The translations under genes and the position numbers were made by a program. Below, piece after piece: positions 30,296-45,459 of a stretch of DNA of 64,000 nucleotides. This DNA is from Neckera pumila (lineage: Eukaryota; Streptophyta; Bryopsida; Hypnales; Neckeraceae): the NCBI GenBank assembly GCA_963969595.1, contig OZ018408.1:1860001-1924000 (forward strand). The letters run 5' to 3'. The notes under the pieces are model-generated. The model was given only the letters and a program-made list of their open reading frames with translations, made no database searches and was not told the DNA's origin. How positions within the stretch are numbered: position 1 is the stretch's first letter; every line of letters starts with the position of its first letter.

Positions 30296-31085
30296 TTAAC
30301 TCTAAAGTTCCAAGGCCGTTTTTCTATCAAAAATGACTCAAATTGCCAGTTCTATTGCGTTCATTTATGAAAAGAGAAAAATAATTATTTTTAGAATCTA
30401 ACCTTAGGATCTTGTACTTAAATTATCTCAGATCAAATAGTAAAAATTTTACAAAGTTTGACTGTACAGATTAGAAGATATTAGCATTCACAGTTGGAAA
30501 ATTTTGATTTTTTGAACACTGATTTGCAATTTCAGATGACTTTGACCACCATTTGTAAAGAAACTTTGCAGTACAGACCTTGAATTTAATATTTTAATTT
30601 TTTTATGTTGAATAATTGAATTGAGAATCTAAAAAAAAGTAATTCCAAAAAAGTACATTTGATTTTCATTCTTTGAAAAATTGTTAAGTAGAAGTAGGTC
30701 CACGATTGAAAGAAAAACTAAATCGTCAATTGCTCTAAGATGGAATTAAAACACTATAATCCCAATGGTGAAATTGTTTTAGCAAGCAAACTTAGCCTTG
30801 TTGTACAGTTTTTTTGAAAAAATGTGAAAATGGCATTCATAAATGAGTCCTACAAGTTATTTTTTCAAGAAGGTACTCTAATTGCCTAAAAAATAAGATT
30901 GTCCATAACTTTCACATAATAAATCCAAATGGAATGTCTCAAAGCTTCCCACATAGATAAAAATACAATCTATGAGAAAATAATTTTTTGAATTTTTTGA
31001 ATTTTTTTTTGTGTGAGAAGATTTCTGCCCGCCGCATCAAAAAAAAGGATCTTTTGTGCCATAACTTTTGCTCCTGGGCACCAAT
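30296..31085 (+). mobile_element. 0.9 kb TIR element, copy C, left part
   Basis: It starts TTAACTCTAAAGTTCC like copies A and B and follows copy A until the LTR retrotransposon inserts after CCAAT at 31,081-31,085. The remainder resumes at 45,314 and ends CTTTAGGAGTTAA at 45,459. Summed length about 936 bp, against 910 and 931 bp for the intact copies. Confidence 0.65.
31081..31085. repeat. Target-site duplication (left), CCAAT
   Basis: Five bases CCAAT immediately before the 5' LTR, repeated at 45,309-45,313 directly after the 3' LTR. Five bases is the usual Ty3/gypsy duplication. Confidence 0.9.
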
Positions 31086-32905
31086 TGTAGATAGGTGTTT
31101 CTTCTATTTTTCTTAGTCTTTTAGGATGTGTTTTTGACGTTTTAGAGTGGCTGTATGTGTATTTGTGTGCCAATTTGGAAGTTTTGTCTTATAAATAGCC
31201 AAATTGGAGTCCTTTTCCGGTGACGGTTGATTAATTGAGTGGGTCCTAGTTGGTTTATGGTTGGGTTCGAGGGGGTCTTATTCCGAATTGGTTTTGCCAG
31301 TGAGTTGTGGATGAAGGGCGGAGTTGCCAATTTGGATGTTTTCTTTCTGTTTCTATTTGGTTATTTGTGGCAGTTCCGAGTTGGGGTCTGAGCTGTTAGG
31401 TTGGTTATCTCCGAGTTGGTAACTGCCAGTTTTGGAATTCCTATTTGGTTGTTGATTTTGTGGTCATTTGGACCCACTGTTGAGAGCGAGTCCAGTGTGT
31501 GTCCCGGCCAAATCGTGCTGTGTAATTCTGTGTTTCTAGTTCTTTTGTGTGTGATTTTGTGTCTGTGAATCCAAGTTGGTGTGTGTGTGGTTTATGTTAA
31601 GTCATGTTTGAGTCTGTGTTCGAGTCGGAGATGAATGGTGATACCGGTGTGATGTGAGTGAGTGCTAATTAGAGATTTGTCGTGTGATGGGAACATGGAG
31701 TTGGGTGTTTAAGGAAGTGCAGAAAGTTGAAGAATTTATTCAAGTTGTGGAGATGTGGTTTGCCGGAGAGCAGTGAATGTTAACCAGTGGGAAATTCCTA
31801 TTTGGCAAAGATGAGCGCCAGTGTGTGAAGAAGTTGAAGTAGTTGATTTCGAGTTAGTGGTGTGAGGTGATTATGAAGTTAAGTCCAAATTGGAGATCAG
31901 AAGAGAGGACTTAGAATTAGAGCTTATAGCAGTGTTTAGAGCGCTGAGAATTTTATAAGCTGTGGAGCTTGTTACATGTTTTAATGGTGATTTGTCACCG
32001 AGTTGGTTTAATGTGAATTGAAATTATTATGCCAAATGGTTGTGCTGTGAGGGATGCATTATCCGGGAAGTGAACGATTATATTCTTGTTGATTTCAGTT
32101 GGTGAAGTTATAATTTGTTGTAATCAGAGTGGTTGTAGTTGATGTGAGTGGAAACCAAATTGGAAAATTTAAGCTTGAATGTTGTTTGTCTAATTTTCCG
32201 AATTTGGTTATTGGTTGTGTGTTATGTTTGACTCAGTGAGAGATTAATTTGATGATGGGTGATTGAAATCCCGAGTTGATTATAAACATCCTGTGAGTTA
32301 AGTGAGTAATTCCAAATTGGGATCTAAGCAATGTTAATTTCGCAATAAATAGAATTATGTTAAGTGAAGTGTGAAATGACAAGGGAGCAAGCAAAATCAG
32401 AAGGTGAAGATTTGGTGGTTGAGAATGGAGTAAACTAGAAGTTAAGAGTGAAGAAAATTACCAAATAGGAGAGAAGAAGATCCAGTTGGTGGTGAGATAA
32501 AAATCCTATTCGGAAAGCTGAAGAGTGCGGCGCAGTGAGCAGCTGGAAGAGCCGAGTTGGAAGACGGACAACCCGACTTGGTGGTGGTCCCTGTGCCAGT
32601 GCGGAACCGAGTTGGTGGAAAGAACATGAAGACCGACTTGGCATTTGGGAGATTGGCTTAACCTCTTTGGGTGTTAAAAAAATTAATTAAAAATTTAAAT
32701 ATTAAAATTTAAATTGAAAGGAAACTATATATATATATGTTAAATTATGGATAGTTGGGTCTATTTTCTTTCTTGCTTGGTGTTTGTAGTGTCCTATTAG
32801 GCTACTAATTGACTAATTAGAAACGAACCTATTAGACAGACCTCCCTGGATCGAACATAAACTATAAGTTGGGTAAATTCCTAGTTGGGTTCCAACGCAT
32901 CTACA
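31086..32905 (+). repeat. 5' LTR
   Basis: 1,820 bp beginning TGTAGATAGG and ending GCATCTACA, giving a 7-bp terminal inverted repeat TGTAGAT/ATCTACA. Against the 3' LTR I see two substitutions (near 31,670 and 32,085) and a one-base indel (near 31,821). It contains 22 exact matches to CCDANTHGG. The first is at 31,170 and the last at 32,880. Promoter and polyadenylation sites must lie here but I cannot place them with confidence; a TATA-like run is near 32,729. Confidence 0.95.
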
Positions 32906-32908
32906 TTT

Positions 32909-32926
32909 TGGCGCCGCTGCCGGGGA
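32909..32926 (+). promoter_or_regulatory. Primer binding site, tRNA-Asp type
   Basis: TGGCGCCGCTGCCGGGGA starts three bases after the 5' LTR. It pairs with the 3' end of plant tRNA-Asp(GUC) at 17 of 18 positions (compared from memory). tRNA-Asp priming is known for Athila-type elements. Confidence 0.8.
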
Positions 32927-32997
32927 GGCGAAATAATAGGTATTAATTTTTATTTTTCTTCCTCTTTTCTGAGACTTCATAGGTATGATGCTCGGTA

Positions 32998-35900
32998 ATG
33001 AGCAATATCTCTTTAAAATCTGAGGCTAGTAAAAAAGCTAGAGCTAAAAGAGTGAGGAAAAGAGATGCGAAGAAAAATCGCGAATTGGTTTCTAAAACTG
33101 AATCAGAACCAGCATCTCCAAGTTGGAGGAGCTCGTTCCAATTAGGACAATTCTTTAGACAAAATCCTGAGAGTAGTCATAATCAAGGACATGATGACCG
33201 AGTAGAAGAAAATGTCCAAAGTAGGATAGAGAATATAAAAAACAATAAAAATATTAAAGAAGGTTTTGATAAGCACCATTTGTTGTGTGAACCAATTTGT
33301 GTATCAAATCTTCCATCACCAGAGGATTCACCAAGAGAATCTGGTGACGAGGGTCAGTCCAAATTGGAAGAGGTCGGGAAAAGTAATTTAGTATTACCTG
33401 ACCCACCGTTAATTGATTCCCCATTAGGATCTTTTAAAGGAAGATCTAGTCCAGTAGTGGGGGAAGAAGAGAATTCAAGTAGGCGTAAAGATCCAACTTG
33501 GAAGTCGGAAAGGAGAAAAATTCAAATCCCTTTAGCTTTTCAACAGGAGTTCGATTTGGAAACAGTAAGACGGAATTTAGAGGAAACACTTTTCTCCGAT
33601 TTGGGAAGAAATAACCAAGTTGAAGAAAGAAGGGTAGCGATGGCAGCCCCAGTGGCTGAAATCCCAGTAGTAATGAGGCAAGGTGATGAGGTTGATAGGC
33701 CCTATGCACTTATGCCATTTCCGGTTTTTAATGGCCGAATGGGAGATGACCCAGATAGTCATGTGCATCAGTTTTTGACTTGTTGTAATGCTAACAACGC
33801 AAGAACTGAGGCACATTTTTTAAGTATTTTCCCTGGTACATTACGTAATCAAGCTAACAATTGGTTTCAAAGACAACCAATAGGGCATTTTACTACGTGG
33901 ACATGGTTGAAAGACGAATTTTTAACTCATTTTCGTCCCGCTGTATATCAAGAAAAATTATTTGAGAAATTGGCCGAGTTGCATATGGTAAGTGGGGAAC
34001 GCATAGACAGTTATTATGGTAGATTAGAAGAAATTATGCTTCGATTACCAAATCATGATTATCCTGATGCGCATTTTATGCGTCAATTCATAAATGGGTT
34101 GTACCCACCTAAACTAAAGGCTTTTGTCAAGGAAGTTAGTCCTGCTGATTTACCAACAGCCTTCCAAAGAGCTAAGTTGTGGGAAGAAGTACATTTAGGT
34201 GAGACATATATAAGTCCTACTATAGTACAACCTAGTTATTTGGACCAAATAGGAGTGCAAAGAGAAGATTTACCAAGTGCTAATATACCTATCTATAGGC
34301 AACCGGATTATGTTAATGTTATCCCAATGACCCAGACTCAAGTAGCTTCTATTAGGGAACCAAATAATAGGAATCCAATAGGAATTGTTCCTCAACAAAT
34401 TCAACCAATTGTAAAGGAACCCAATTCGGCTGTAGAAGCTCAATTAATGGAATTAACTAAACAATTGGGAAATTTGCAAGTAAACATGGCAAAAACAACT
34501 GAGAAAAAGGGTCAACCAAATGAGGACCGTGCACACATTTGGTGCACAAATTGTAGAGGACATGGGCATATGGCACCTGATTGTCCTTCCCCACAAAATC
34601 AACCATTAAAGTGTAGATTTTGTGGTGGGAAGCATGACACACTTGCATGTAGAAATTTACAAGCTAGTTTAATAACTCATGCAAATAATTTAAATAAAAG
34701 TGCTCAAGTATACCAAGTGGATTCTAATTCAAATAATGGTCCAATGAATAATCCAAATTGGGGAAATAATCAAAATTGGAATAATAATTATAATCGGCCA
34801 AGGAGGAGGAATTTTAATTCTAATCCAAATTATAATTCACCTAACTCAAATTTTATTCCAAATAATTTTAATAATGGAGGATATAATAATAATCCCAATA
34901 GGTTTAATCCTCAAATACCAATTGGGAATAACCAGGGTTGGTCACAATTACCCTATAGTAATGTCAGTCAAGGACCTCCTATTTATGGAGGCAACATTCC
35001 AAATTGGGGTGGTAACCAAGTAGGAGGAAATAGGAATATTATTTGTTACTGTTGTAATCAACCCGGTCATATAGCTACTAATTGTACTAATGCAAGAGCT
35101 AGTGAGCAATATGCTCCCCTATGTGGGAATTGCAAGCAATCCGGTCATACGGCCGAGGAATGCAATGGCCCACGTAGGAATGATTCACAACAAGGTTATA
35201 ATACCAATAGAAGGGATAATAGTCCAGAAATAGTCCAATTGGATGAAAATGAAAACCCTCCAAATAATAAAGATCGTGCTTCCTTTTTAGTTCAAGTGGA
35301 TACTAATGATAATTCAGTTCCTAATAGGAAAGAGAAAAGAGTTCAAAAAGTCTCTACTAGGAACCAAATTGTAAAAGAAAATCCTCAGGGTAATTTAGAA
35401 ATTTTAAAAGAAAAAAAAATTACGCGTAAAGAAGCACAGCAGTTGTTAAATCAACGCAACCAATTCGGTTTAAATTCTATGTTGGGAGGACAGTCTAATA
35501 ATTTGTTAAGGAATCCTATTGGAAATGAAGAACAATCAAATAGGGCCGAGAATAATTTAAGTACTGTCATTAAGAAGCCTAATGGGAAGTCTGTGCAGTT
35601 TGGTGCAGTCACATCAATGACTGTACCAAAGCAGACTAATATACCAAATGGGATCATAGTACCAGGAATTAATTCCCTGCCCGAGTCGGTTGAGAGATCA
35701 AATCCTCATGATGAGGAACCATTGGTGATACCACCTATTTGGTTGGAGCCTGAAGGTCTGGCTGACCAGGCTGAGTCTGATTTGGAAGTTGTTCCCGAAA
35801 TTCATTCGGATACCAAGTTGGGCGAGTCAGATCCGCCTAATAGGAAAGCCCGAATTGGGAAGTTAAAATCACCCATTAGGAGGAGAGGTTTAAATAACCA

Positions 35901-36207
35901 AATAGGAATTATTGATGAGGCTAATCCTTATAATGTTATTGACAATTTGGGTACTGTCAAGGCTGACATTTCTATTTGGCAGTTGTTAGGAATTTCCCCT
36001 TCTTGTCGGGCAGCTCTTAAAGCCAAATTGGTCAGGAAACGAGTTAGACAAGTTCATGAAGTAGCATTAAGTCCCGATCCGGGAGCTCTTGTAATTAATG
36101 TGGAGATAGAAGGCCTAATTGTATCCGGTGTTCAAGTTGATGGTGGTTCCAGTGTGAACCTGATGAACCAGGATACAATGTTGGGACTTCATCTAACAGG
36201 ATTATAA
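32998..36207 (+). CDS. Gag and start of protease, ends at in-frame TAA
   Basis: Capsid/nucleocapsid polyprotein of the retrotransposon, 1,069 codons from an ATG. Order: a basic N-terminus, a retrotransposon Gag domain (about residues 240-400, with WLKDEF and YYGRLEEI), then CCHC-type knuckles near residues 515-550 (CTNCRGHGHMAPDC) and 680-735 (CYCCNQPGHIATNC, CGNCKQSGHTAEEC) separated by an Asn-rich linker, and a long acidic linker. It ends inside a retropepsin-like domain just after VQVDGGSSVNLM, where the active-site triad is DGG rather than DTG/DSG. The TAA at 36,205 is in frame with the next ORF, so protease is split by the stop. About 18 CCDANTHGG motifs lie within the ORF, in all three codon phases. 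Whether the stop is read through or is a lesion is open. Confidence 0.9.
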   Translation: MSNISLKSEASKKARAKRVRKRDAKKNRELVSKTESEPASPSWRSSFQLGQFFRQNPESSHNQGHDDRVEENVQSRIENIKNNKNIKEGFDKHHLLCEPICVSNLPSPEDSPRESGDEGQSKLEEVGKSNLVLPDPPLIDSPLGSFKGRSSPVVGEEENSSRRKDPTWKSERRKIQIPLAFQQEFDLETVRRNLEETLFSDLGRNNQVEERRVAMAAPVAEIPVVMRQGDEVDRPYALMPFPVFNGRMGDDPDSHVHQFLTCCNANNARTEAHFLSIFPGTLRNQANNWFQRQPIGHFTTWTWLKDEFLTHFRPAVYQEKLFEKLAELHMVSGERIDSYYGRLEEIMLRLPNHDYPDAHFMRQFINGLYPPKLKAFVKEVSPADLPTAFQRAKLWEEVHLGETYISPTIVQPSYLDQIGVQREDLPSANIPIYRQPDYVNVIPMTQTQVASIREPNNRNPIGIVPQQIQPIVKEPNSAVEAQLMELTKQLGNLQVNMAKTTEKKGQPNEDRAHIWCTNCRGHGHMAPDCPSPQNQPLKCRFCGGKHDTLACRNLQASLITHANNLNKSAQVYQVDSNSNNGPMNNPNWGNNQNWNNNYNRPRRRNFNSNPNYNSPNSNFIPNNFNNGGYNNNPNRFNPQIPIGNNQGWSQLPYSNVSQGPPIYGGNIPNWGGNQVGGNRNIICYCCNQPGHIATNCTNARASEQYAPLCGNCKQSGHTAEECNGPRRNDSQQGYNTNRRDNSPEIVQLDENENPPNNKDRASFLVQVDTNDNSVPNRKEKRVQKVSTRNQIVKENPQGNLEILKEKKITRKEAQQLLNQRNQFGLNSMLGGQSNNLLRNPIGNEEQSNRAENNLSTVIKKPNGKSVQFGAVTSMTVPKQTNIPNGIIVPGINSLPESVERSNPHDEEPLVIPPIWLEPEGLADQAESDLEVVPEIHSDTKLGESDPPNRKARIGKLKSPIRRRGLNNQIGIIDEANPYNVIDNLGTVKADISIWQLLGISPSCRAALKAKLVRKRVRQVHEVALSPDPGALVINVEIEGLIVSGVQVDGGSSVNLMNQDTMLGLHLTGL

Positions 36208-39204
36208 GAGACCAAGTTGGTATTACGCATGGCTGACCAGAGTAGGGTCAAGCCATTAGGCATTTTACCCAAAGTTAAAACTAGAATAGCCGGGTTAATA
36301 TTTATGATAGATTATATTATATTTCAACCTAATACCCAAAATGCTTCCTATCCCATCCTATTAGGTAGGCCCTGGTTGTATCAAGCCAGGGCAAAGGACG
36401 ATTGGGGGAAGGGACTTATGAAGATTGCCCAAGGTAATCATACAGTTAGTATTGCCATGTATGCTAATAAATATCTTGGTGAAACCCAATGGGAGTCCCC
36501 TGGCAATACTAGTGATTTTGGTTATGATTCCGAATTGGATGATCTGCATACTAATAGAATAAATATAAAAAATAAGGATAAAAATATAAAAGATCAAGTA
36601 ATAAAAAAATATAAAGAACTAGCTTTAGGAGAATATATTATCCCTTGTGAGGACGAAGATAATTCGGATAAGGCCATTTATGGTTGGTTAACCGATAAGG
36701 TAGTATATGGAGTTAATTCCGATTGGGAAGTTGAAGAGAGTAGTGAAGAGTATTATTTGGATAAAATGGCTGATGTCCCTATTAGGTCATATGTGGCTAA
36801 GGATCAGTGTCAAAATGTGAATATTGGGTCTTTGATAGAAGAAAAAAATATTCAAATAAATAAGGATTTAAAACCTGAAGAATTAGCCAAGTGGGCTCGA
36901 TTCTTTGAGACTCATATTACTACATTTGCTTGGTCTTATAAAGACTTGAGAGGGGTTTCACCTAAAATATGTGAACATCATATTGATTTGGAGGATGGAG
37001 CTAAGCCAATTAGGCAAAGGCCCCATCGTCTAAATCCTAAATATTCATTATTAGTAAAGGAAGAAATAGAAAAATTAATTAATATTGGTTTTATTTATCC
37101 TGCTCCTAATAGCAAGTGGGTAAGTCCTATAGTGATTGTGCCAAAGAAAGATGGACGTATTCGTATATGTCAAGATTTTAGGAAGTTAAATGCTGTTACT
37201 AAGAAGGATGGATTTCCATTACCCTTCACTGACAGTATTTTGGATACGGTGGCCGGCCATGAATGTTATTCATTCATGGACGGTTTCTCTGGATATAATC
37301 AAATCCAGATCGCTAGGGAAGATCAAGCTAAAACGGCTTTTGTAACCGATTTGGGTATATATGCGTCTAGAGTTATGTTATTTGGACTTTGTAATGGGGC
37401 AGCCACGTTTCAACGTGTGGCCACTTTAGCCTTCCAAGACTATCTTCGAAAATTCATGGAGATTTTCTTGGACGACTTTTGTGTGTTTGGTACCAAATTC
37501 GACCATGCTAATCATTTGGCATTGTGTTTCGAGAAATGTAACAAGTTTGGCATTTCTTTAAACGCATCAAAATGTCAATTTTTAGTACCTTATGGCAAAT
37601 TACTTGGTCATATTATAAGTGGTGAGGGAATTAGAACGGATCCCGATAAAGTGGCTAAAATATCCAAATTGCCTATTCCCTCTACTATTACTCAAGTACG
37701 TGGATTTCTTGGTCATGTTAGCTATTATCGTCGGTTCATTAAAAATTATGCCCAAATAGCTTTACCCCTGACCAGTCTTCTTAAAAAATTAGAAGTGGGC
37801 ACTAACCCAGTGTGGACACCTGAGTGTGGTGAGGCATTTTTAATATTAAAACAAAAATTAATGACGGCTCCAGTATTGATTTCACCTAATTGGGAAAAAT
37901 CTTTTCATGTATATGTGGACGCCAATAATGTGGCAATGGGGTGTATCTTGAGTCAAAAAGATGAGTTTGACAAGGATCATCCCATATATTATGCTAGCCG
38001 CCAATTTGTACCCGCTGAAAAAAATTATACTACTACCGAGCGGGAGGCCTTAGGTATGATTTATGCGGTACAAAAATTTCGTCATTACCTACTTGGGTAT
38101 AAGTTTACGTTTTATGTTGATCATGATGCGCTTAATTATGTTATAAATAAGCCACAATTAAGTGGGCGTCTGGCTAGGTGGGTGTTACTTTTACAAGAGT
38201 TTAATTTCGATATAGTGGTTTGCCCAAGTAAACAACACTCTAACGCTGATTTTCTTTCAAGGTTAGAGGATAAAGTAGATCCAAATGGGTCACCGGTGGA
38301 GGATGATATTCCCGACGCTGCCCTTTTTGAGGTAGATATTATTCATACCGAATATGCGGATATTTTAAATTATTTAAGTACTAATTTGTTTCCTAGTAAT
38401 TATAGTGCTAGGCAAAAGTCTGCCCTAATTAGGAAGGTTGCTCCTTATACATTGATTGACAAAACTTTGTATAAGTTAGGTCATGATGGTGTGCTTAGGA
38501 GGTGCATTTATAGGAGTGAAGTTCATGATATTCTACAAAGTTGCCATTCGGATGTGTGCGGTGGCCACTTTGCAGGTATATCTACAGCACAAAAAGTTTT
38601 GCTTGCTGGCTATTGGTGGCCGTCCCTATTTCGGGATGCTCACGAATTTGGAAGGCGCTGTGATCCGTGTCAGAGGGTGGATAAACCCTCACCTTCCACG
38701 GCAATGCCGTTAATTCCTTTAATGGCCTTAGTCCCATTTGAAAAATGGGGAATTGATTTCGTAGGTCCCATTGCCCCAGCTACAAAACATGGCCGTAAAC
38801 AATATATTTTAGTGGCGACTGATTACGCTACCAAATGGGCTGAGGCTATGGCTGCCCGTAATGACGATGCCAAAACGGTGGCACGTTTTTTATATGAAAA
38901 TATAATTTCACGATTTGGGTGCCCTCGGGAATTAATTAGTGATCGGGGCACACATTTCTTAAATACTACTATTGAGGAATTAACTACTAGGTTTTTAATT
39001 AAGCATAGGAAGACGGCCCCTTATCATCCTAGGGCTAACGGGCAAACCGAGAAAACAAATGGGATATTGTGTAAAATTTTGACTAAGACAATAAGTGGGG
39101 CTGCTACTAATTGGGATGAAAAATTATGGGGTGCCTTGTGGACATACCGAACTGCCTACAAGGGTACAACGGGGTTTTCCCCATTCCAATTGGTATACGG
39201 CTAA
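36208..39204 (+). CDS. Pol: protease end, reverse transcriptase, RNase H, integrase core
   Basis: Same frame as Gag, directly after the TAA. The start matches the C-terminal half of a retropepsin (YPILLGRPWL). The reverse transcriptase has SPIVIVPKKDGRIRIC, FMDGFSGYNQI and the catalytic box IFLDDF. RNase H has VYVDANNVAMG, TTTEREALG and VDHDALNY. The integrase has an HHCC finger (CHSDVCGGHF then CDPC) and a DDE core at GIDFVGP, ISDRGTHF and GQTEKTNG. All catalytic residues of RT, RNase H and integrase are present. A TAA at 39,202 interrupts the frame shortly after the core. Only about seven CCDANTHGG motifs fall in 36,208-39,600, the lowest density in the element. Confidence 0.92.
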   Translation, partial: ETKLVLRMADQSRVKPLGILPKVKTRIAGLIFMIDYIIFQPNTQNASYPILLGRPWLYQARAKDDWGKGLMKIAQGNHTVSIAMYANKYLGETQWESPGNTSDFGYDSELDDLHTNRINIKNKDKNIKDQVIKKYKELALGEYIIPCEDEDNSDKAIYGWLTDKVVYGVNSDWEVEESSEEYYLDKMADVPIRSYVAKDQCQNVNIGSLIEEKNIQINKDLKPEELAKWARFFETHITTFAWSYKDLRGVSPKICEHHIDLEDGAKPIRQRPHRLNPKYSLLVKEEIEKLINIGFIYPAPNSKWVSPIVIVPKKDGRIRICQDFRKLNAVTKKDGFPLPFTDSILDTVAGHECYSFMDGFSGYNQIQIAREDQAKTAFVTDLGIYASRVMLFGLCNGAATFQRVATLAFQDYLRKFMEIFLDDFCVFGTKFDHANHLALCFEKCNKFGISLNASKCQFLVPYGKLLGHIISGEGIRTDPDKVAKISKLPIPSTITQVRGFLGHVSYYRRFIKNYAQIALPLTSLLKKLEVGTNPVWTPECGEAFLILKQKLMTAPVLISPNWEKSFHVYVDANNVAMGCILSQKDEFDKDHPIYYASRQFVPAEKNYTTTEREALGMIYAVQKFRHYLLGYKFTFYVDHDALNYVINKPQLSGRLARWVLLLQEFNFDIVVCPSKQHSNADFLSRLEDKVDPNGSPVEDDIPDAALFEVDIIHTEYADILNYLSTNLFPSNYSARQKSALIRKVAPYTLIDKTLYKLGHDGVLRRCIYRSEVHDILQSCHSDVCGGHFAGISTAQKVLLAGYWWPSLFRDAHEFGRRCDPCQRVDKPSPSTAMPLIPLMALVPFEKWGIDFVGPIAPATKHGRKQYILVATDYATKWAEAMAARNDDAKTVARFLYENIISRFGCPRELISDRGTHFLNTTIEELTTRFLIKHRKTAPYHPRANGQTEKTNGILCKILTKTISGAATNWDEKLWGALWTYRTAYKGTTGFSPFQLVYG

Positions 39205-39600
39205 GAGGCCATTCTTCCCATTGAATTTGAGATTCCTAGTCTTAGGATTGCCATAGAAAATAAATTGGGGGATGAAGAGAGTTTAAGGGCACGACTCACA
39301 ACTTTGGAAGCTTTAGATGAAAAGCGGTGTGAGGCCTATTTAAATACTTTAGCAACCCAAAATAGGCGTAAATCCTATTATGATTCTAAGTTGAGGCCTA
39401 AAGAATTTAAAGTTGGAAGTTTGGTTCTTTTATATGATAGCCGATTCTTTAAATTTCCGGGGAAATTAAAAATGCATTGGTTAGGCCCATATGAAGTGGT
39501 TGATGTTAATCCTAATGGGTCCTTGCAATTAAAAGATTTTGAAGGCAATTTGCTTCCAACTAGGATTAATGGTTATCGGCTTAAGCCATATTTTGTTTAA
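39205..39600 (+). CDS. Integrase C-terminal region, downstream of in-frame TAA
   Basis: Same frame as pol, ending at TAA 39,598-39,600. It contains WLGPYEVVDVNPNGSLQL and NGYRLKPYF, typical of the integrase C-terminal domain of OTA elements, and no chromodomain. It would be translated only if the stop at 39,202 is read through, so this copy's integrase is probably truncated. Confidence 0.8.
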   Translation, partial: EAILPIEFEIPSLRIAIENKLGDEESLRARLTTLEALDEKRCEAYLNTLATQNRRKSYYDSKLRPKEFKVGSLVLLYDSRFFKFPGKLKMHWLGPYEVVDVNPNGSLQLKDFEGNLLPTRINGYRLKPYFV

Positions 39601-39786
39601 ATGCCGAGGGCGGCATTAAATTTTATGGGGGGCCTATCTGTGTTTAAAAATTTTAAAAAAATAAATATATATATATATATATACATCAAATTTAAATTTA
39701 AAGTAGTATGATTATATATTTTAATTACATATGTCATAGTTTTAATAAATGGAGAAAAAAGAAAAGAAAAATGAGAAAGAGAGTTA

Positions 39787-39876
<90 letters not shown>

Positions 39877-40609
39877 CATAATAATATTAATTAAAAAAAA
39901 TTAATTAAAAAAAATAAAAAATAAAAATAAATGATGAGAAATGCCAAGTCGGAGTACCAATTCGGAGGTGACATACCAAAATGGAGGAGGTGGCAGGGGC
40001 CACTCACTGAAAGATGGGTATCATTTCAAATAGGCATCATGTTAAGCCGCCAAGTTCCAAATCGGCGGGATTGTCATCATCAGACCGAGTTGGTTTGTTA
40101 CGAGGCGAAGAGCGAAACCAAATTGGAAGATGAAAGTAGCTTGTGTGTTGTGAAACCTTGGCAATTTGGTGTGTTGTGCGCGTAAAATTGAGAGAGTTGC
40201 TGTGTGTGTGCTTGTGCTTGCGTGGATGAGACCAAATTGGAAGTTGTGTGAGATGTTGTATGTTTTGAGTGAGTGAGCATTGTCGCCAGTCCAAGTTGGA
40301 GTGATTCAGGGCAAAATTGGAGTTCTTTGCGAGTGGCTGAGAGCGTGAGGAGTCTTGCATTACAAGTTTTGAAACCAATTAGGGTTTTAAGCGCGACGTT
40401 GGGGATACAGAGGATATTTTGGTTTGCTTTTTGAGTATTGTGTTTTAGAAGAGGCGTTGTTGTAGTTGTGATCTGAGTTGGGCGCACTGTGAGCAGAAAT
40501 ATGACCAATTAGGGATGGAGAGAAGCAATTTTTCCGAGAGAAAGTGAGGTTTTCGTTTCGAATTGGGAGCATTCGTCGAGAGAACTTAAGGTTGTGGATT
40601 GCAGGTACA
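39601..40609 (+). other. Spacer between pol and the extra ORF
   Basis: Roughly 1 kb. An AT-rich first part holds (AT)n near 39,665 and a (TA)n(GA)n microsatellite at about 39,794-39,869. The second part (39,940-40,609) resembles the LTR in style and holds about nine CCDANTHGG motifs. The last bases read TTGCAG followed by GTACA and the ATG at 40,610, so a splice acceptor just before the extra ORF is possible. Confidence 0.6.
39794..39869. repeat. (TA)n(GA)n microsatellite
   Basis: About 17 TA units followed by about 20 GA units inside the retrotransposon, between pol and the extra ORF. Length is likely variable between copies. Confidence 0.9.
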
Positions 40610-43450
40610 ATGACGGATTCCACTAACAAGGGGAAAAACCCAATGGAGTCAGAAACCGAATTGGTGGAGCCGGAGGTGCAAAAAGAAAAGAAACCAAGAT
40701 TGGGGGATGACCAGCAAGCACCTATTGCCCTGTCCAATGTCGAGTTTGCTAGGGAGCAAGCTGGGGCAGTTGAGAAGGTGGATTGGAACGAGGAGGAGCT
40801 GTTGAAGATTCGTGAAGCCGGGTTGTGGGATTTTTTCCAACTGGTATCGACTTTGAAAGAGGGAGACCTCAACAAGTTGGAGGTTTTCACAATGTCGTAT
40901 ATAGTTCCGCAGCGACAGGGATTGTTTCGTGGTGAGCCGGTGGAATTGAACCCCAGTCGGATAGCGGAAGTGTTTCTATTATCCAAGTCGGGTTTGTCCG
41001 TGCGAGCTGTGGGGGAAGATGGTACCAATTCGGTGTTGGAATGCTTCATTGGAAACGTAACGGAGGAGTAGTCTTCTCAGGATGCGTGGGAGTTGCGGTT
41101 AATAGAACCAAGTTGGCATCCATGGATTGAGTGGGTGAAGACCAATTTGTTATTGGAGCCGACAGAGGGAACGGTTTCTAGAAGTAGCCTCCGAGTTGTA
41201 ATGGCCGTGAGGAAAGGCGTGGAGATCAATTGGGCGTTGTTTCTTTCAAGGAAGTTGCACGCAGCGGTGGTAAATTTCAGTAGGATGCCGAGTGAAGCTT
41301 TGAAGGGAGCCAAATTATTATCCTATTTGGTAGAGGCGAGTTGTAAGAACTTGCCTGAGTCTCAAGCGGTTCCCAAACTAGAGGCAGGGCAGCCGAGTAG
41401 GGAGAGGCCTCCGCAGACGGTGGGGCAGTTTAAGTCCCAGTTGGAGCAGATGATGACCAATTTGGAGCAGTTTGACCCTGCCAAGTTGGACAGCGTTCAA
41501 AAGGAGAATGCTGCATTGTTGCAGGAGGTCTCAAAGCTGAAAGCCGAGTTGGCTGATTCTCAAGAAGAGCGAGTCCAGTACGAGATCCAAGTCGCGAGTG
41601 AGCAGCAAGATCTTTTGGACCAAGTTGGGGAATTAAAGGAGAAAGTGAACCGGCTAGGGAGGAAGGTGGAGGTAGAACAGAGTGCCAAATTGGAGTTGCA
41701 GGAGTGGATGCATGCTATGGAGCACCAGTTAGAAAATTGGGAGGTGAAGGTGAAGCAAGCTCTAGCCAAGTCGGAATCTGAAGAGGAGGAGGAGCTTATT
41801 TCACTAAAGCAACCCGAATTGGTGGGACTTGAGGCGGAGGAGCAGCGAGTGCGGGAGTACTACAAGGATTTGCATGCATCGAGTAGCCGTGCCCAAGAGA
41901 AGTCCACTCCAATTCGGAAACGCCAGCGAGTATTTCACGCGGAGGACTTGGCCGTGTTGAATTTGCGAATTCCGCCTACTTCCAATTTGGAATTCGCTTA
42001 TGCATGGGAGCGGGAGGTGTTTTTTCTTCATACAGGGCTGCAGATGAACGAAGTCCTTCCAAAGGCAAAGTTTAAAACAATTTGGAATAGGGCTATTCAG
42101 CTGAAGTGTGAAAATTTGGTGGCCGAGATCGTGGCACGGGGGGAGATGGTGCCAAAAGACAAATTGGCTGCGTTGGCGACGGTAGGGGATTACGGGGCAC
42201 GGAGCTTGCTCTTTTATTCCGAATTGGAGGCAGCATTGGCCCAGAGGCGGCGGATGGCATATACCTATTCGGCGAAGAGAAGGGAGTGTGTGGGGTCTCA
42301 ATTGTTGGACGGGGTGGCCCAGGCTTTATCTGCATCGAGGCCAGCCTTGCAGGTAATTGATGCCGAGTGGATAAAGGCAATTACGAGTTTGGAAAAGGAG
42401 TTTCAAGCCCCAGATTGGCTGCATGAGACGATTACAAATGTCCAAGATCGGTGTATGGAGAGCAAGGTGGTGGATGTGCATCCTGCCACTTATGTAGCCA
42501 AATTCGGGTCGGTGCGTGAGAGTTTAGCAGGTAAACTCCAAGTTGGAGGGTTGAGAAAGGTTCCTATTTGGAATACGGAGGCAGAGTTGAGTTACAGGCG
42601 GCCCCAAATTGGTGATGCATGGGTAGACTTGCCCGGCTTGTCAAGTACTCTCATTACGTGGAAGTTACCTGAGTATTCTTATTCGGAGTTGGAGGACCGG
42701 TTCTTGGGCTGCTATGAAGCCCTGTTTGACAAGCTTTCAGATGTTCCTTTTCCAAGTTGGAGTGCGGTGTTTTGGCTAGGGCGTGATCACAGTGAGGTGC
42801 ACAGGGCCCCACTTGTGGCATTGGACAAATTGGATCATATGGAGCGTGCCTCTCGCGTGAATCATCCTCCCAATTTGGTTGCTGCTGATCCGAGATTTTG
42901 TCCTTGCCCACGTTGTTATTTCTGGAGGGCAGATGCCAAGTTGGATTCGCTTTGGTACAACTGGCCGGTGATTCAGGGCAAGTTTACTACTTACCAAGAG
43001 TGTGTGGATTCCTATTCGGAGTTTGCAGCCCAGCATAGATGCCACAAGGATCCCGTGTGCTTCAAGGCTAGTATCTTTGCGGCGATATTGGCGAGTTGGT
43101 GCAAGGAGTACCAATTTGTGGTTGACTACCGAGTGGGAGCACGTCTTAGCACCAACATGGAGATTTTTTCCAAGATTCATTATCATTCGGCGAAGCGGAT
43201 GAGGTTATTAGAACTGATGTGTGTGACTCAATTTTTACCAGGTGCTCATAATGTTATGATTTCAGATGCGTGTGTGGGGTTGGGGACTCGTCGTGGTCTG
43301 GTGTTTCAGTTTTATGATAATCAAGTGCCGATTTGGAAAGAACGTGCTGCTTTGGCAAAGAAGTTGCGAGAGACGGCAGGGAATCCTAAGACTAGGCAAT
43401 TGCTTCCTCTTAAGCGTGGGGTGGCTCGGACGTTCAAGCTGAGAAAATAG
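40610..43450 (+). CDS. Extra 3' ORF of unknown function, coiled-coil, split by one TAG
   Basis: I do not recognise this protein. One frame of 946 codons from ATG 40,610 to TAG 43,448-43,450, interrupted by a TAG at 41,069-41,071. It sits in the env-like position but shows no signal peptide or membrane helix. N-terminal part: charged leader, then a globular stretch around WHPWIEWVKTNLL and VEINWALFLSRKL that faintly recalls the plant mobile-domain / putative plant transposon protein families. Middle: a long coiled coil, about 41,430-41,870, in heptads of Leu, Glu and Lys. C-terminal half: a Trp/Tyr-rich globular region with a CPCPRCYFW cysteine cluster near 42,900, ending very basic (RGVARTFKLRK). 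About 24 CCDANTHGG motifs lie within the ORF. The ORF ends 37 bp before the 3' LTR. A nucleic-acid-binding or anti-silencing role is inference. Confidence 0.7.
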
Positions 43451-43487
43451 AGTTTGGCGGGAACGCAAACGAATCGGTGTGGGGCTA

Positions 43488-45308
43488 TGTAGATAGGTGT
43501 TTCTTCTATTTTTCTTAGTCTTTTAGGATGTGTTTTTGACGTTTTAGAGTGGCTGTATGTGTATTTGTGTGCCAATTTGGAAGTTTTGTCTTATAAATAG
43601 CCAAATTGGAGTCCTTTTCCGGTGACGGTTGATTAATTGAGTGGGTCCTAGTTGGTTTATGGTTGGGTTCGAGGGGGTCTTATTCCGAATTGGTTTTGCC
43701 AGTGAGTTGTGGATGAAGGGCGGAGTTGCCAATTTGGATGTTTTCTTTCTGTTTCTATTTGGTTATTTGTGGCAGTTCCGAGTTGGGGTCTGAGCTGTTA
43801 GGTTGGTTATCTCCGAGTTGGTAACTGCCAGTTTTGGAATTCCTATTTGGTTGTTGATTTTGTGGTCATTTGGACCCACTGTTGAGAGCGAGTCCAGTGT
43901 GTGTCCCGGCCAAATCGTGCTGTGTAATTCTGTGTTTCTAGTTCTTTTGTGTGTGATTTTGTGTCTGTGAATCCAAGTTGGTGTGTGTGTGGTTTATGTT
44001 AAGTCATGTTTGAGTCTGTGTTCGAGTCGGAGATGAATGGTGATACCGGTGTGATGTGAGTGAGTGCTAATTGGAGATTTGTCGTGTGATGGGAACATGG
44101 AGTTGGGTGTTTAAGGAAGTGCAGAAAGTTGAAGAATTTATTCAAGTTGTGGAGATGTGGTTTGCCGGAGAGCAGTGAATGTTAACCAGTGGGAAATTCC
44201 TATTTGGCAAAGATGAGCGCCAGTGGTGTGAAGAAGTTGAAGTAGTTGATTTCGAGTTAGTGGTGTGAGGTGATTATGAAGTTAAGTCCAAATTGGAGAT
44301 CAGAAGAGAGGACTTAGAATTAGAGCTTATAGCAGTGTTTAGAGCGCTGAGAATTTTATAAGCTGTGGAGCTTGTTACATGTTTTAATGGTGATTTGTCA
44401 CCGAGTTGGTTTAATGTGAATTGAAATTATTATGCCAAATGGTTGTGCTGTGAGGGATGCATTATCCGGGAAGTGAACGATTGTATTCTTGTTGATTTCA
44501 GTTGGTGAAGTTATAATTTGTTGTAATCAGAGTGGTTGTAGTTGATGTGAGTGGAAACCAAATTGGAAAATTTAAGCTTGAATGTTGTTTGTCTAATTTT
44601 CCGAATTTGGTTATTGGTTGTGTGTTATGTTTGACTCAGTGAGAGATTAATTTGATGATGGGTGATTGAAATCCCGAGTTGATTATAAACATCCTGTGAG
44701 TTAAGTGAGTAATTCCAAATTGGGATCTAAGCAATGTTAATTTCGCAATAAATAGAATTATGTTAAGTGAAGTGTGAAATGACAAGGGAGCAAGCAAAAT
44801 CAGAAGGTGAAGATTTGGTGGTTGAGAATGGAGTAAACTAGAAGTTAAGAGTGAAGAAAATTACCAAATAGGAGAGAAGAAGATCCAGTTGGTGGTGAGA
44901 TAAAAATCCTATTCGGAAAGCTGAAGAGTGCGGCGCAGTGAGCAGCTGGAAGAGCCGAGTTGGAAGACGGACAACCCGACTTGGTGGTGGTCCCTGTGCC
45001 AGTGCGGAACCGAGTTGGTGGAAAGAACATGAAGACCGACTTGGCATTTGGGAGATTGGCTTAACCTCTTTGGGTGTTAAAAAAATTAATTAAAAATTTA
45101 AATATTAAAATTTAAATTGAAAGGAAACTATATATATATATGTTAAATTATGGATAGTTGGGTCTATTTTCTTTCTTGCTTGGTGTTTGTAGTGTCCTAT
45201 TAGGCTACTAATTGACTAATTAGAAACGAACCTATTAGACAGACCTCCCTGGATCGAACATAAACTATAAGTTGGGTAAATTCCTAGTTGGGTTCCAACG
45301 CATCTACA
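43488..45308 (+). repeat. 3' LTR
   Basis: 1,821 bp, TGTAGATAGG to ATCTACA, nearly identical to the 5' LTR. The preceding bases (GAATCGGTGTGGGGCTA) make a poor polypurine tract, so the plus-strand primer is not clear. TSD CCAAT follows at 45,309-45,313. Confidence 0.95.
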
Positions 45309-45459
45309 CCAATTGAAATAAAAATTATATCCTATAAAGCTAATGTATTTTTTTATCTTCATAAAAAGTATCAAAAAATAATGATGAATATTGAAGCCAT
45401 AGTAGCCTGCCTGAAGTCCATTTTGTCCCTTGATGGGACAATGGGACTTTAGGAGTTAA
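45309..45459 (+). mobile_element. 0.9 kb TIR element, copy C, right part
   Basis: Begins with the right CCAAT target duplication and ends CTTTAGGAGTTAA, the terminal repeat seen in copies A and B. It completes the element interrupted at 31,085. Confidence 0.6.

What the first reader, a model, noticed from the sequence alone, without database searches (positions are those of the whole stretch)
31086..45308. Retrotransposon saturated with a 9-bp degenerate palindrome, CCDANTHGG
Across the whole LTR element short words recur: CCAAATTGG, CCGAGTTGG, CCAAGTTGG, CCTATTTGG, CCAATTCGG, CCTATTAGG, CCGACTTGG. All fit one palindromic consensus CC-D-A-N-T-H-GG. In the 5' LTR I count 22 exact matches in 1,820 bp, for example at 31,170, 31,199, 31,245, 31,283, 31,327, 31,376, 31,411, 31,440, 31,571 and 32,552. 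About 18 fall in gag, 7 in pol, 33 in 39,940-43,340 and a matching set in the 3' LTR, roughly 100 in all. Independent bases at about 40% G+C predict one or two. I noticed no such cluster in the flanks. No known LTR signal explains it. A working idea is a dispersed binding site for an element-encoded or host protein, as VANC anti-silencing proteins have in VANDAL elements of Arabidopsis. Other options are a packaging/RNA signal or a host factor captured by the element.
Basis: partly seen in the sequence, partly recalled or inferred. Interest (0 to 1): 0.92.

Follow-up and report, generated by a model that had tools for sequence, protein, structure and literature searches.

The report
Retrotransposons marked with private DNA words
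In a land-plant genome (probably a moss), several families of retrotransposons that share one extra gene are each peppered with their own short palindromic DNA word, which suggests that the extra gene makes a protein that recognises its own element's DNA, perhaps to escape silencing.

Summary
CCDANTHGG occurs 106 times in the 14.2-kb element and 5 times in 49.8 kb of flank; dinucleotide shuffles give about 1.6. The 1-nt spacer is strict: 84 sites, against 8 each for 0 or 2 nt. Against copy L010, 0 of 84 fixed bases changed in the non-coding 3' part while 292 of 1302 others did. Half-sites vary independently, so this looks like a dsDNA site, not RNA pairing.

The decisive result came from the same genome. 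The extra 3' ORF has 59 matches there. The 16 best-scoring ones carry the same word. More distant ones lack it; of 23 such loci in my tree, 16 carry other words (CCRATYGG, CWATWG, GACAANTTGTC or, weakly, TGCTTNAAGCA) and seven, one clade, carry none. Word class follows the ORF tree with the minimum 5 changes; shuffles gave 15 or more. Three related elements without a detectable ORF, two of them decayed, have no clear word.

Best reading: the ORF encodes a dimeric DNA-binding protein that marks its own family, working like VANC of VANDAL transposons but not a VANC. Binding and anti-silencing are inferred.

The parts
31081..31085 (.). target-site duplication CCAAT, left copy
   Evidence: the same five bases follow the 3' LTR
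31086..32905 (+). 5' LTR (TG...CA), 22 CCDANTHGG sites
   Evidence: 1818 of 1820 aligned bases identical to the 3' LTR, plus one 1-nt gap
32909..32926 (+). primer-binding site TGGCGCCGCTGCCGGGGA
   Evidence: sequence; tRNA-Asp type by recall, not tested
32989..36207 (+). gag and start of protease frame (Retrotrans_gag, zinc knuckles); 19 sites; ends at an in-frame TAA
   Evidence: protease by eye, no Pfam match
36208..39600 (+). pol frame (RT, RNase H, integrase), with one further in-frame TAA ending at 39204; 9 sites
39601..40504 (+). spacer between pol and the extra ORF, 8 sites
40505..41071 (+). first part of the extra ORF (N-terminal domain), in frame with the next part, ended by a TAG in this copy; 4 sites
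   Evidence: the frame is open over 981 aa in L011
41072..43450 (+). main part of the extra ORF ('ORFb'): probable coiled-coil region, then a conserved Cys/His-rich C-terminal domain (aa 300-732); candidate sequence-specific DNA-binding protein; 22 sites
43488..45308 (+). 3' LTR, 22 sites
45309..45313 (.). target-site duplication CCAAT, right copy
31170..45291 (.). dispersed array of 106 palindromic CCDANTHGG sites (first site at 31170, last at 45283)

Best explanation
CCDANTHGG is the double-stranded DNA binding site of a protein encoded by the element's own extra 3' ORF (40505-43450). The protein probably binds as a coiled-coil dimer, one subunit per CCDA half-site, with a fixed 1-nt spacer. 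Selection has built up and keeps sites along the whole element, including coding sequence, so that the protein can recognise its own family and no other. Related families have changed both the protein and the site. The most likely use, by analogy with VANC, is to keep the family's own chromatin from being silenced. Shown here: the array, its geometry, its conservation, its turnover and its co-segregation with the ORF. Inferred: that this ORF product is the binder, that it is a dimer, and that the effect is anti-silencing.
For: Enrichment of about 50-fold over shuffles, with strict spacing. Half-sites independent (35 complementary pairs, 37.5 expected) and strand-symmetric (P = 0.30). Purifying selection on the fixed bases, L009/L010: 0 of 84 changed against 292 of 1302 in the non-coding 3' part and 0 of 132 against 76 of 2178 in the ORF. 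Sites turn over between subfamilies: 10 of 46 (L014) and 10 of 48 (L015) aligned sites intact, yet 50, 42 and 40 sites per locus. Not copied by duplication: 1 of 84 sites lies in a tandem repeat, and site flanks are no more alike than random ones. Other ORF clades carry other words, with a nearly diagonal table and 5 class changes on the ORF tree against 15 or more in 2000 shuffles. One element each of classes A, B and C has an LTR pair 99.7-99.9% identical (B and C pairs cut at the end of the stretch), so distinct words coexist in recently inserted families of one genome. Elements of the same pol clade without a detectable ORF (L048, L049) and of a sister pol clade (L045) lack a clear class word. 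The ORF diverges fastest: about 32% identity in its C-domain and no match of its N part on its own between class A and classes B or C, against 39-41% for gag and 67-76% for RT to integrase.
Against: No binding or methylation data. No known DNA-binding domain in the ORF, and the fold prediction failed. The ORF is not sufficient: 7 of 34 loci, one clade around L042, have no word that my scans could find. Gag and pol also differ with the class, and among the places listed I saw no recombinant that separates them from the ORF. The ORF-less controls are few, and two of three are decayed copies (L048 and L049: 3 and 5 stops in the pol match); L048 has 3 CCDANTHGG in 5 kb. Site conservation is weaker in the decayed copy L012 (9 of 90 against 210 of 1286), in class B (19 of 132 against 1292 of 4750) and in class C, where the most distant pair shows almost none (84 of 216 against 1834 of 4321).
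Confidence: 0.55

Rival explanations
1. Same binder (the extra ORF product), other purpose: it coats the element's cDNA or integrated copies for transcription, nuclear import, protection against self-integration, or clustering, rather than countering silencing.
For: Sites lie along the whole element and in both LTRs, including gag and pol, as a coat or scaffold would need; all the binding evidence above applies equally.
Against: No direct evidence for any such role. The only worked-out precedent that I found for family-private words in a plant transposon is anti-silencing (PMC5735166, passages read).
Confidence: 0.2
2. Another element protein (Gag nucleocapsid or integrase) is the binder.
For: Gag and pol differ between classes too (gag 39-41% identical between class A and classes B and C), and Gag has zinc knuckles.
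Against: Elements with related pol but no detectable extra ORF (L048, L049, both decayed) and a sister-clade element (L045) have no clear class word. Nucleocapsid and integrase are not known (recall) for strict 9-bp palindromic dsDNA sites.
Confidence: 0.12
3. A host-encoded transcription factor or silencing factor binds the word.
For: Palindromic sites of this size are typical of host factors; the binder has not been identified.
Against: Different families in one genome, with near-identical LTR pairs where these were seen (one element each of classes A, B and C), carry nearly exclusive words that track an element gene. One host factor would not explain five words, and conservation suggests that the sites help the element.
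Confidence: 0.08
4. An RNA-level signal: packaging, dimerisation or splicing.
For: A palindrome in RNA could pair between two genomes; most of the element is expected to be transcribed.
Against: Half-sites do not co-vary (35 complementary pairs against 37.5 expected), which pairing within or between copies would favour.
Confidence: 0.03
5. Artefact of base composition, coding bias or tandem duplication.
For: None beyond GC content near 41%.
Against: Dinucleotide and codon shuffles, spacer controls, hardly any tandem repeats, genome-wide control.
Confidence: 0.01

Closest known systems
VANC proteins and their target motifs in VANDAL (Mutator-like) transposons of Arabidopsis
   Same: A transposon family carries many copies of a short word (8 or 9 bases); relatives carry a different word; the word goes with a fast-changing gene in the element (PMC5735166 and PMC10398659, passages read).
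   Different: Here it is an LTR retrotransposon, not a DNA transposon. The words are palindromes with a fixed spacer, scattered singly through coding and non-coding DNA, not in non-coding tandem repeats. The protein has no match to the VANC domains in Pfam. Binding and demethylation are not tested.
Ty3/gypsy LTR retrotransposons with an extra 3' ORF (Athila/Tat-like by recall)
   Same: LTRs, PBS, gag, RT-RNaseH-integrase order, extra ORF between pol and the 3' LTR.
   Different: I know of no described member with a family-private dispersed palindrome; none showed in the listings, which are partial.
Extra ORF of sunflower Tekay elements, said to resemble dsRNA-binding proteins (PMC12844716, passages read)
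   Same: An extra ORF in plant LTR elements that has been discussed in the context of anti-silencing.
   Different: It is called dsRNA-binding-like, and no dispersed DNA word is mentioned in the passages that I read.

Membership tests
Ty3/gypsy LTR retrotransposon | Near-identical LTRs with TG...CA ends, short target duplication, PBS | tested here: met
   1818 of 1820 aligned bases, TSD CCAAT, PBS at 32909
Ty3/gypsy LTR retrotransposon | Gag, then RT-RNaseH before integrase | tested here: met
   Pfam order
Chromovirus branch of Ty3/gypsy | Chromodomain at the integrase C-terminus | tested here: not met
   No chromodomain match in 36208-39204 or 39205-39600 at E up to 0.1
Athila or Tat lineage of Ty3/gypsy | RT/integrase phylogeny | not tested
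   No reference elements were compared; the label is recalled
VANC/VANDAL anti-silencing system | Encoded by a Mutator-like DNA transposon | tested here: not met
   It is an LTR retrotransposon
VANC/VANDAL anti-silencing system | Protein with DUF1985/DUF287 regions | tested here: not met
   Neither is among the 21 families matched by any of 12 ORF members in a Pfam scan at E up to 10 (HMMER filters drop most matches above about 0.1); domain names from PMC5735166. A search of the host genome with the DUF1985 model (accession recalled) did not complete
VANC/VANDAL anti-silencing system | Short word accumulated in own family and differing between related families | tested here: met
VANC/VANDAL anti-silencing system | Word sits in non-coding tandem repeats | tested here: not met
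   1 of 84 sites in a tandem repeat; 54 of 84 sites lie in gag, pol or extra-ORF frames
VANC/VANDAL anti-silencing system | Protein binds the word and removes silencing marks | not testable with these tools
   No binding or methylation data at hand
MADS-domain CArG box | CC(A/T)6GG, 10 bp (recalled) | tested here: not met
   Spacer strictly 1 nt, 9 bp in all; G at position 3, any base at 5 and C at 7 occur

The most novel reading that the evidence does not exclude
Plant LTR retrotransposons encode their own family of sequence-specific self-recognition proteins, unrelated to VANC, whose palindromic address exists in five versions (at least four rewrites) and is written across the whole element; and a second, unrelated extra ORF in a sister lineage (word ACCGGA) evolved the same trick independently. 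Self-addressed DNA marking would then be a general, convergent strategy of plant mobile elements.
Probability: 0.5. Interest if true: 0.95.

Novelty: new variant of a known kind. Interest (0 to 1): 0.9.

Why it matters
If right, transposon-encoded self-recognition is not a peculiarity of VANDAL DNA transposons: retrotransposons, probably outside seed plants, would have it too, with a different protein and a cleaner code. One genome would hold a natural series of related proteins with at least four clearly different sites, which makes the evolution of DNA-binding specificity directly testable. It would also explain how several retrotransposon families could be active in one genome without waking each other.

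Tried and rejected
Composition, codon bias and tandem duplication as causes: rejected. RNA pairing: disfavoured by independent half-sites. CArG box: rejected by length. AlphaFold2 of the ORF C-domain with two sequences gave pLDDT 32 and was not used. Profile search of the PDB with 12 ORF sequences gave 5 matches at E 0.19 to 0.95, several of them coiled coils, taken as chance. Protein searches found a single relative outside the genome, P0001, 71% identical over 61% of the query, on a 1.5-kb contig from a JGI source (only about 8,000 candidates were scored each time); a viral-contig scan found none. As a proxy I folded P0002, a relative of the unrelated class E ORF, with 76 others (77 of the 101 relatives; pLDDT 72, pTM 0.53: a confident N-terminal domain plus long helices); Foldseek had no match at E up to 0.001 and the second look aligned only the helical part, about residues 295-483, so this is inconclusive.

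Corrections to my own work: loci from the genome search come in contig orientation, which I learned. The alignments with minus-strand loci are therefore wrong and were redone, and the 1-kb profiles for the L025 and L037 elements are in the wrong order (redone). L035 and L036 were first labelled 'none' and given class F only after L054 and L058 were fetched; class labels are thus post hoc. L059 (20 class C words in 5 kb, about 8 expected from the flanks), L026 (weaker palindrome scan, 10^-7.7) and L035 (4 class F words) are weak members. Six of the 40 ORF loci were left out of the 34-locus tree because they overlap others or are short (L013, L017, L020, L021, L023, L032); all six are dense in the class A word (16 to 38 each). 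Of 59 ORF matches (this copy included), 40 were fetched as loci, several from the same element; 19 were not fetched on their own. L033 is 40% identical to ORFb over about 211 residues and is class C, so identity over a fragment does not predict the class. L048 shows an AT-rich low-complexity palindrome (10^-9.6) that I did not count as a word. Each literature listing (20, 23, 52, 58, 67, 68, 86, 87) showed at most 12 titles with the first lines of abstracts; the 2022 EMBO J paper on eudicot VANCs is not held, so it was not read.
Full report
What is there. The window lies at G000:C1:1860001-1924000 of a 339.5-Mb genome in 18 contigs. The host is photosynthetic: 49 matches to the chlorophyll a/b-binding family. 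For one of these proteins the nearest single-domain solved chains are 7xqp_a and 8htu_U, which I recall as moss photosystem structures; 'probably a moss' is therefore an inference. The element at 31086-45308 is a young Ty3/gypsy LTR retrotransposon: LTRs of about 1820 bp with 1818 of 1820 aligned bases identical, a 5-bp target duplication CCAAT, a primer-binding site at 32909, gag with zinc knuckles, and RT-RNaseH-integrase. Between pol and the 3' LTR is an extra ORF (40505-43450). This copy's gag-pol frame is broken by two in-frame stops and its extra ORF by one; another copy (L011) has the extra ORF open over 981 codons.

CCDANTHGG is found 106 times in the element, 84 times with one LTR counted, and 5 times in 49,777 bp of flank. 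Dinucleotide shuffles of the one-LTR element give a mean of 1.58 and a maximum of 5 in 100; codon-preserving shuffles give means of 4.9, 1.5, 0.8 and 3.7 in the four coding blocks against 19, 9, 4 and 22 observed (the third block is not significant alone). The half-sites CCDA and THGG need exactly one base between them: 84 sites, against 8 with none and 8 with two. Density is lowest where protein constraint is expected to be highest: 12.1 per kb in the LTRs, 5.9 in gag, 2.7 in pol, 8.8 in the spacer, and 7.1 and 9.2 in the two parts of the extra ORF. Genome-wide the pattern is 37,041 against 22,176 for the reversed control. Two small clusters that I read outside full elements (L060, L061) match DNA beside class A relatives (L024, L019); L061 also matches loci of classes B and C.

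It looks like a conserved double-stranded site. The bases at positions 3 and 7 vary independently (35 complementary pairs observed, 37.5 expected) and the two halves have similar base frequencies (P = 0.30), as expected for two subunits reading two half-sites and not for RNA pairing. Near copies keep the sites: window copy (L009) against L010, 47 of 48 aligned sites intact; against L011, 46 of 49; against L012, whose ORF match holds five stops, 40 of 49. In the non-coding 3' part, fixed motif bases differ at 0 of 84 positions (L010) and 1 of 90 (L011) while the rest differs at 292 of 1302 and 280 of 1291; there the free central base differs at 14 and 20% of sites. The contrast is weaker with L012: 9 of 90 against 210 of 1286. 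Against a subfamily with about 54% DNA identity, only 10 of 46 (L014) and 10 of 48 (L015) aligned sites are shared, yet those loci have 42 and 40 sites against 50 here: positions turn over while the number is kept. Sites are not spread by duplication: 1 of 84 is in a tandem repeat and site flanks are no more alike than random flanks. In other classes conservation is weaker: class B 19 of 132 against 1292 of 4750; class C from 9 of 204 against 427 of 4443 to 84 of 216 against 1834 of 4321 in the most distant pair.

Relatives carry other words. The extra ORF has 59 matches in the genome, this copy included. An unbiased scan for palindromes (three fixed bases per half, gap 0 to 6) found CC.A-T.GG as the top pattern in the 16 best-scoring loci (L009-L024, identity 40-100%) and in L032, at 10^-7.8 to 10^-55.6 (class A). 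Loci of the other word classes, mostly about 30% identical, have at most one CCDANTHGG each but have their own words: class B CCRATYGG, no spacer (L025, L029); class C CWATWG, no spacer (L026, L027, L028, L030, L031, L033, L034 and weakly L059); class D GACAANTTGTC-like, 1-nt spacer (L037, L043); class F TGCTTNAAGCA, 1-nt spacer, sparse (L035, L036, L054, L058). Spacer scans are sharp: B (L025+L039) 49 against 0-4 at other spacings; C (L041+L027) 141 against 11-30; D (L037) 28 against 0-2. In 11 loci tested for their own class word (A, B, C, D or F) the count exceeds every one of 200 dinucleotide shuffles. Classes A to D share the half-site core C-N-A / T-N-G. In nine 5-kb chunks of window flank the best palindrome reached 10^-4.0. 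In one native class B and one class C element, whose LTR pairs are 99.8 and 99.7% identical over the 1.1 kb seen, the words run along the whole element; in the class D element they start only after the pol match.

Word class tracks the extra ORF. On a tree of 34 ORF loci (11 A, 2 B, 8 C, 2 D, 4 F, 7 none) every class is one clade: 5 changes, the minimum for six labels, against a mean of 19.9 and a minimum of 15 in 2000 label shuffles (labels were assigned after seeing the words). The table of word densities by locus is nearly diagonal; the main exception is that class B loci also score for CWATWG, which overlaps their own word. Between class A and classes B or C, RT to integrase is 67-76% identical, the start of the pol frame 49-56%, gag 39-41%, the ORF C-domain about 32%, and the ORF N part has no match on its own, although longer alignments do extend into it. 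Elements of the same pol clade without a detectable ORF in the 5 kb read (L048, L049, both decayed) and a sister-clade element (L045) have no clear class word; L048 has 3 CCDANTHGG. Against a simple rule: seven loci of one ORF clade (L038, L042, L044, L047, L055, L056, L057) have the ORF and no word that I could find, palindromic or not, so the ORF is not sufficient, or that clade uses a site that these scans miss.

The protein. The ORF has an N-terminal domain, a probable coiled-coil stretch (weak leucine-zipper-type matches below cut-off) and a conserved C-terminal domain with a Cys/His pattern, FCxCPRRYKW ... YNWP ... C ... H..H.DPVCF. No Pfam family matches any of 12 members with E below 0.003. 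That this domain contacts DNA is inference. A two-sequence AlphaFold2 model was useless.

Mechanism. The most economical reading is a dimeric, element-encoded DNA-binding protein and its private, selected sites: a self-address. What the bound protein does is not shown. VANC proteins of Arabidopsis VANDAL transposons are the only precedent that I found: they bind family-specific words of eight or nine bases and remove silencing from their own family (PMC5735166 and PMC10398659, passages read; also mentioned in passages of PMC13317346 and PMC12859917). This element works like that in its logic, but it fails three VANC membership features (transposon type, DUF1985/DUF287 domains, non-coding tandem repeats). 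I put about 0.9 on a dsDNA-binding site, about 0.75 on the extra ORF product as binder, and about half on anti-silencing as the purpose.

A possible second system. Three elements of a sister pol clade (L046, L050, L051) carry a different extra ORF, unrelated to ORFb by profile comparison (hhalign probability 0.1%), and an excess of ACCGGA/TCCGGT (24, 20 and 25 in 5 kb; shuffle means 3.5 and 2.3 for the first two, the third not shuffled) on both strands; L050's ORF is only 29% identical to L046's, yet the word is the same. That ORF family has 101 relatives in the protein collection. This enrichment is weaker, the word is not palindromic and the DNA is richer in GC (about 50%), so I hold it as a lead.

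Literature. In the listings of searches, each at most 12 titles, I saw no description of family-private dispersed words in LTR retrotransposons; most subscription papers, and the 2022 EMBO J paper on eudicot VANCs, are not in the library.

Noticed in passing
L046:2075-3748, L050, L051: A sister lineage of Ty3 elements has a different, unrelated extra ORF and an excess of ACCGGA/TCCGGT on both strands: a possible second self-address system; the ORF has 101 protein relatives elsewhere.
   Followed up: partly
L038, L042, L044, L047, L055, L056, L057: One clade of the extra ORF has no detectable dispersed word, although the pol beside L042 is as close to the window's (68%) as that of word-bearing classes B and C.
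   Followed up: partly
window:31079-31085 and 45309-45315: The element sits in CACCAATTG, so its target duplication CCAAT resembles a half of its own word; one insertion only, perhaps chance.
   Followed up: no
window:36205-36207, 39202-39204, 41069-41071: LTRs are almost identical (very recent insertion) although gag-pol and the extra ORF of this copy are interrupted by in-frame stops, so it may have been mobilised with help from other copies.
   Followed up: no
P0001: The only outside relative of the extra ORF found is a 486-aa protein, 71% identical, on a 1.5-kb contig from a JGI source, so a related element was sequenced elsewhere.
   Followed up: no
L060 1885-2967, L061 1611-2439: Small clusters of CCDANTHGG outside full elements match DNA beside class A relatives L024 and L019; L061 also matches loci of classes B and C.
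   Followed up: partly
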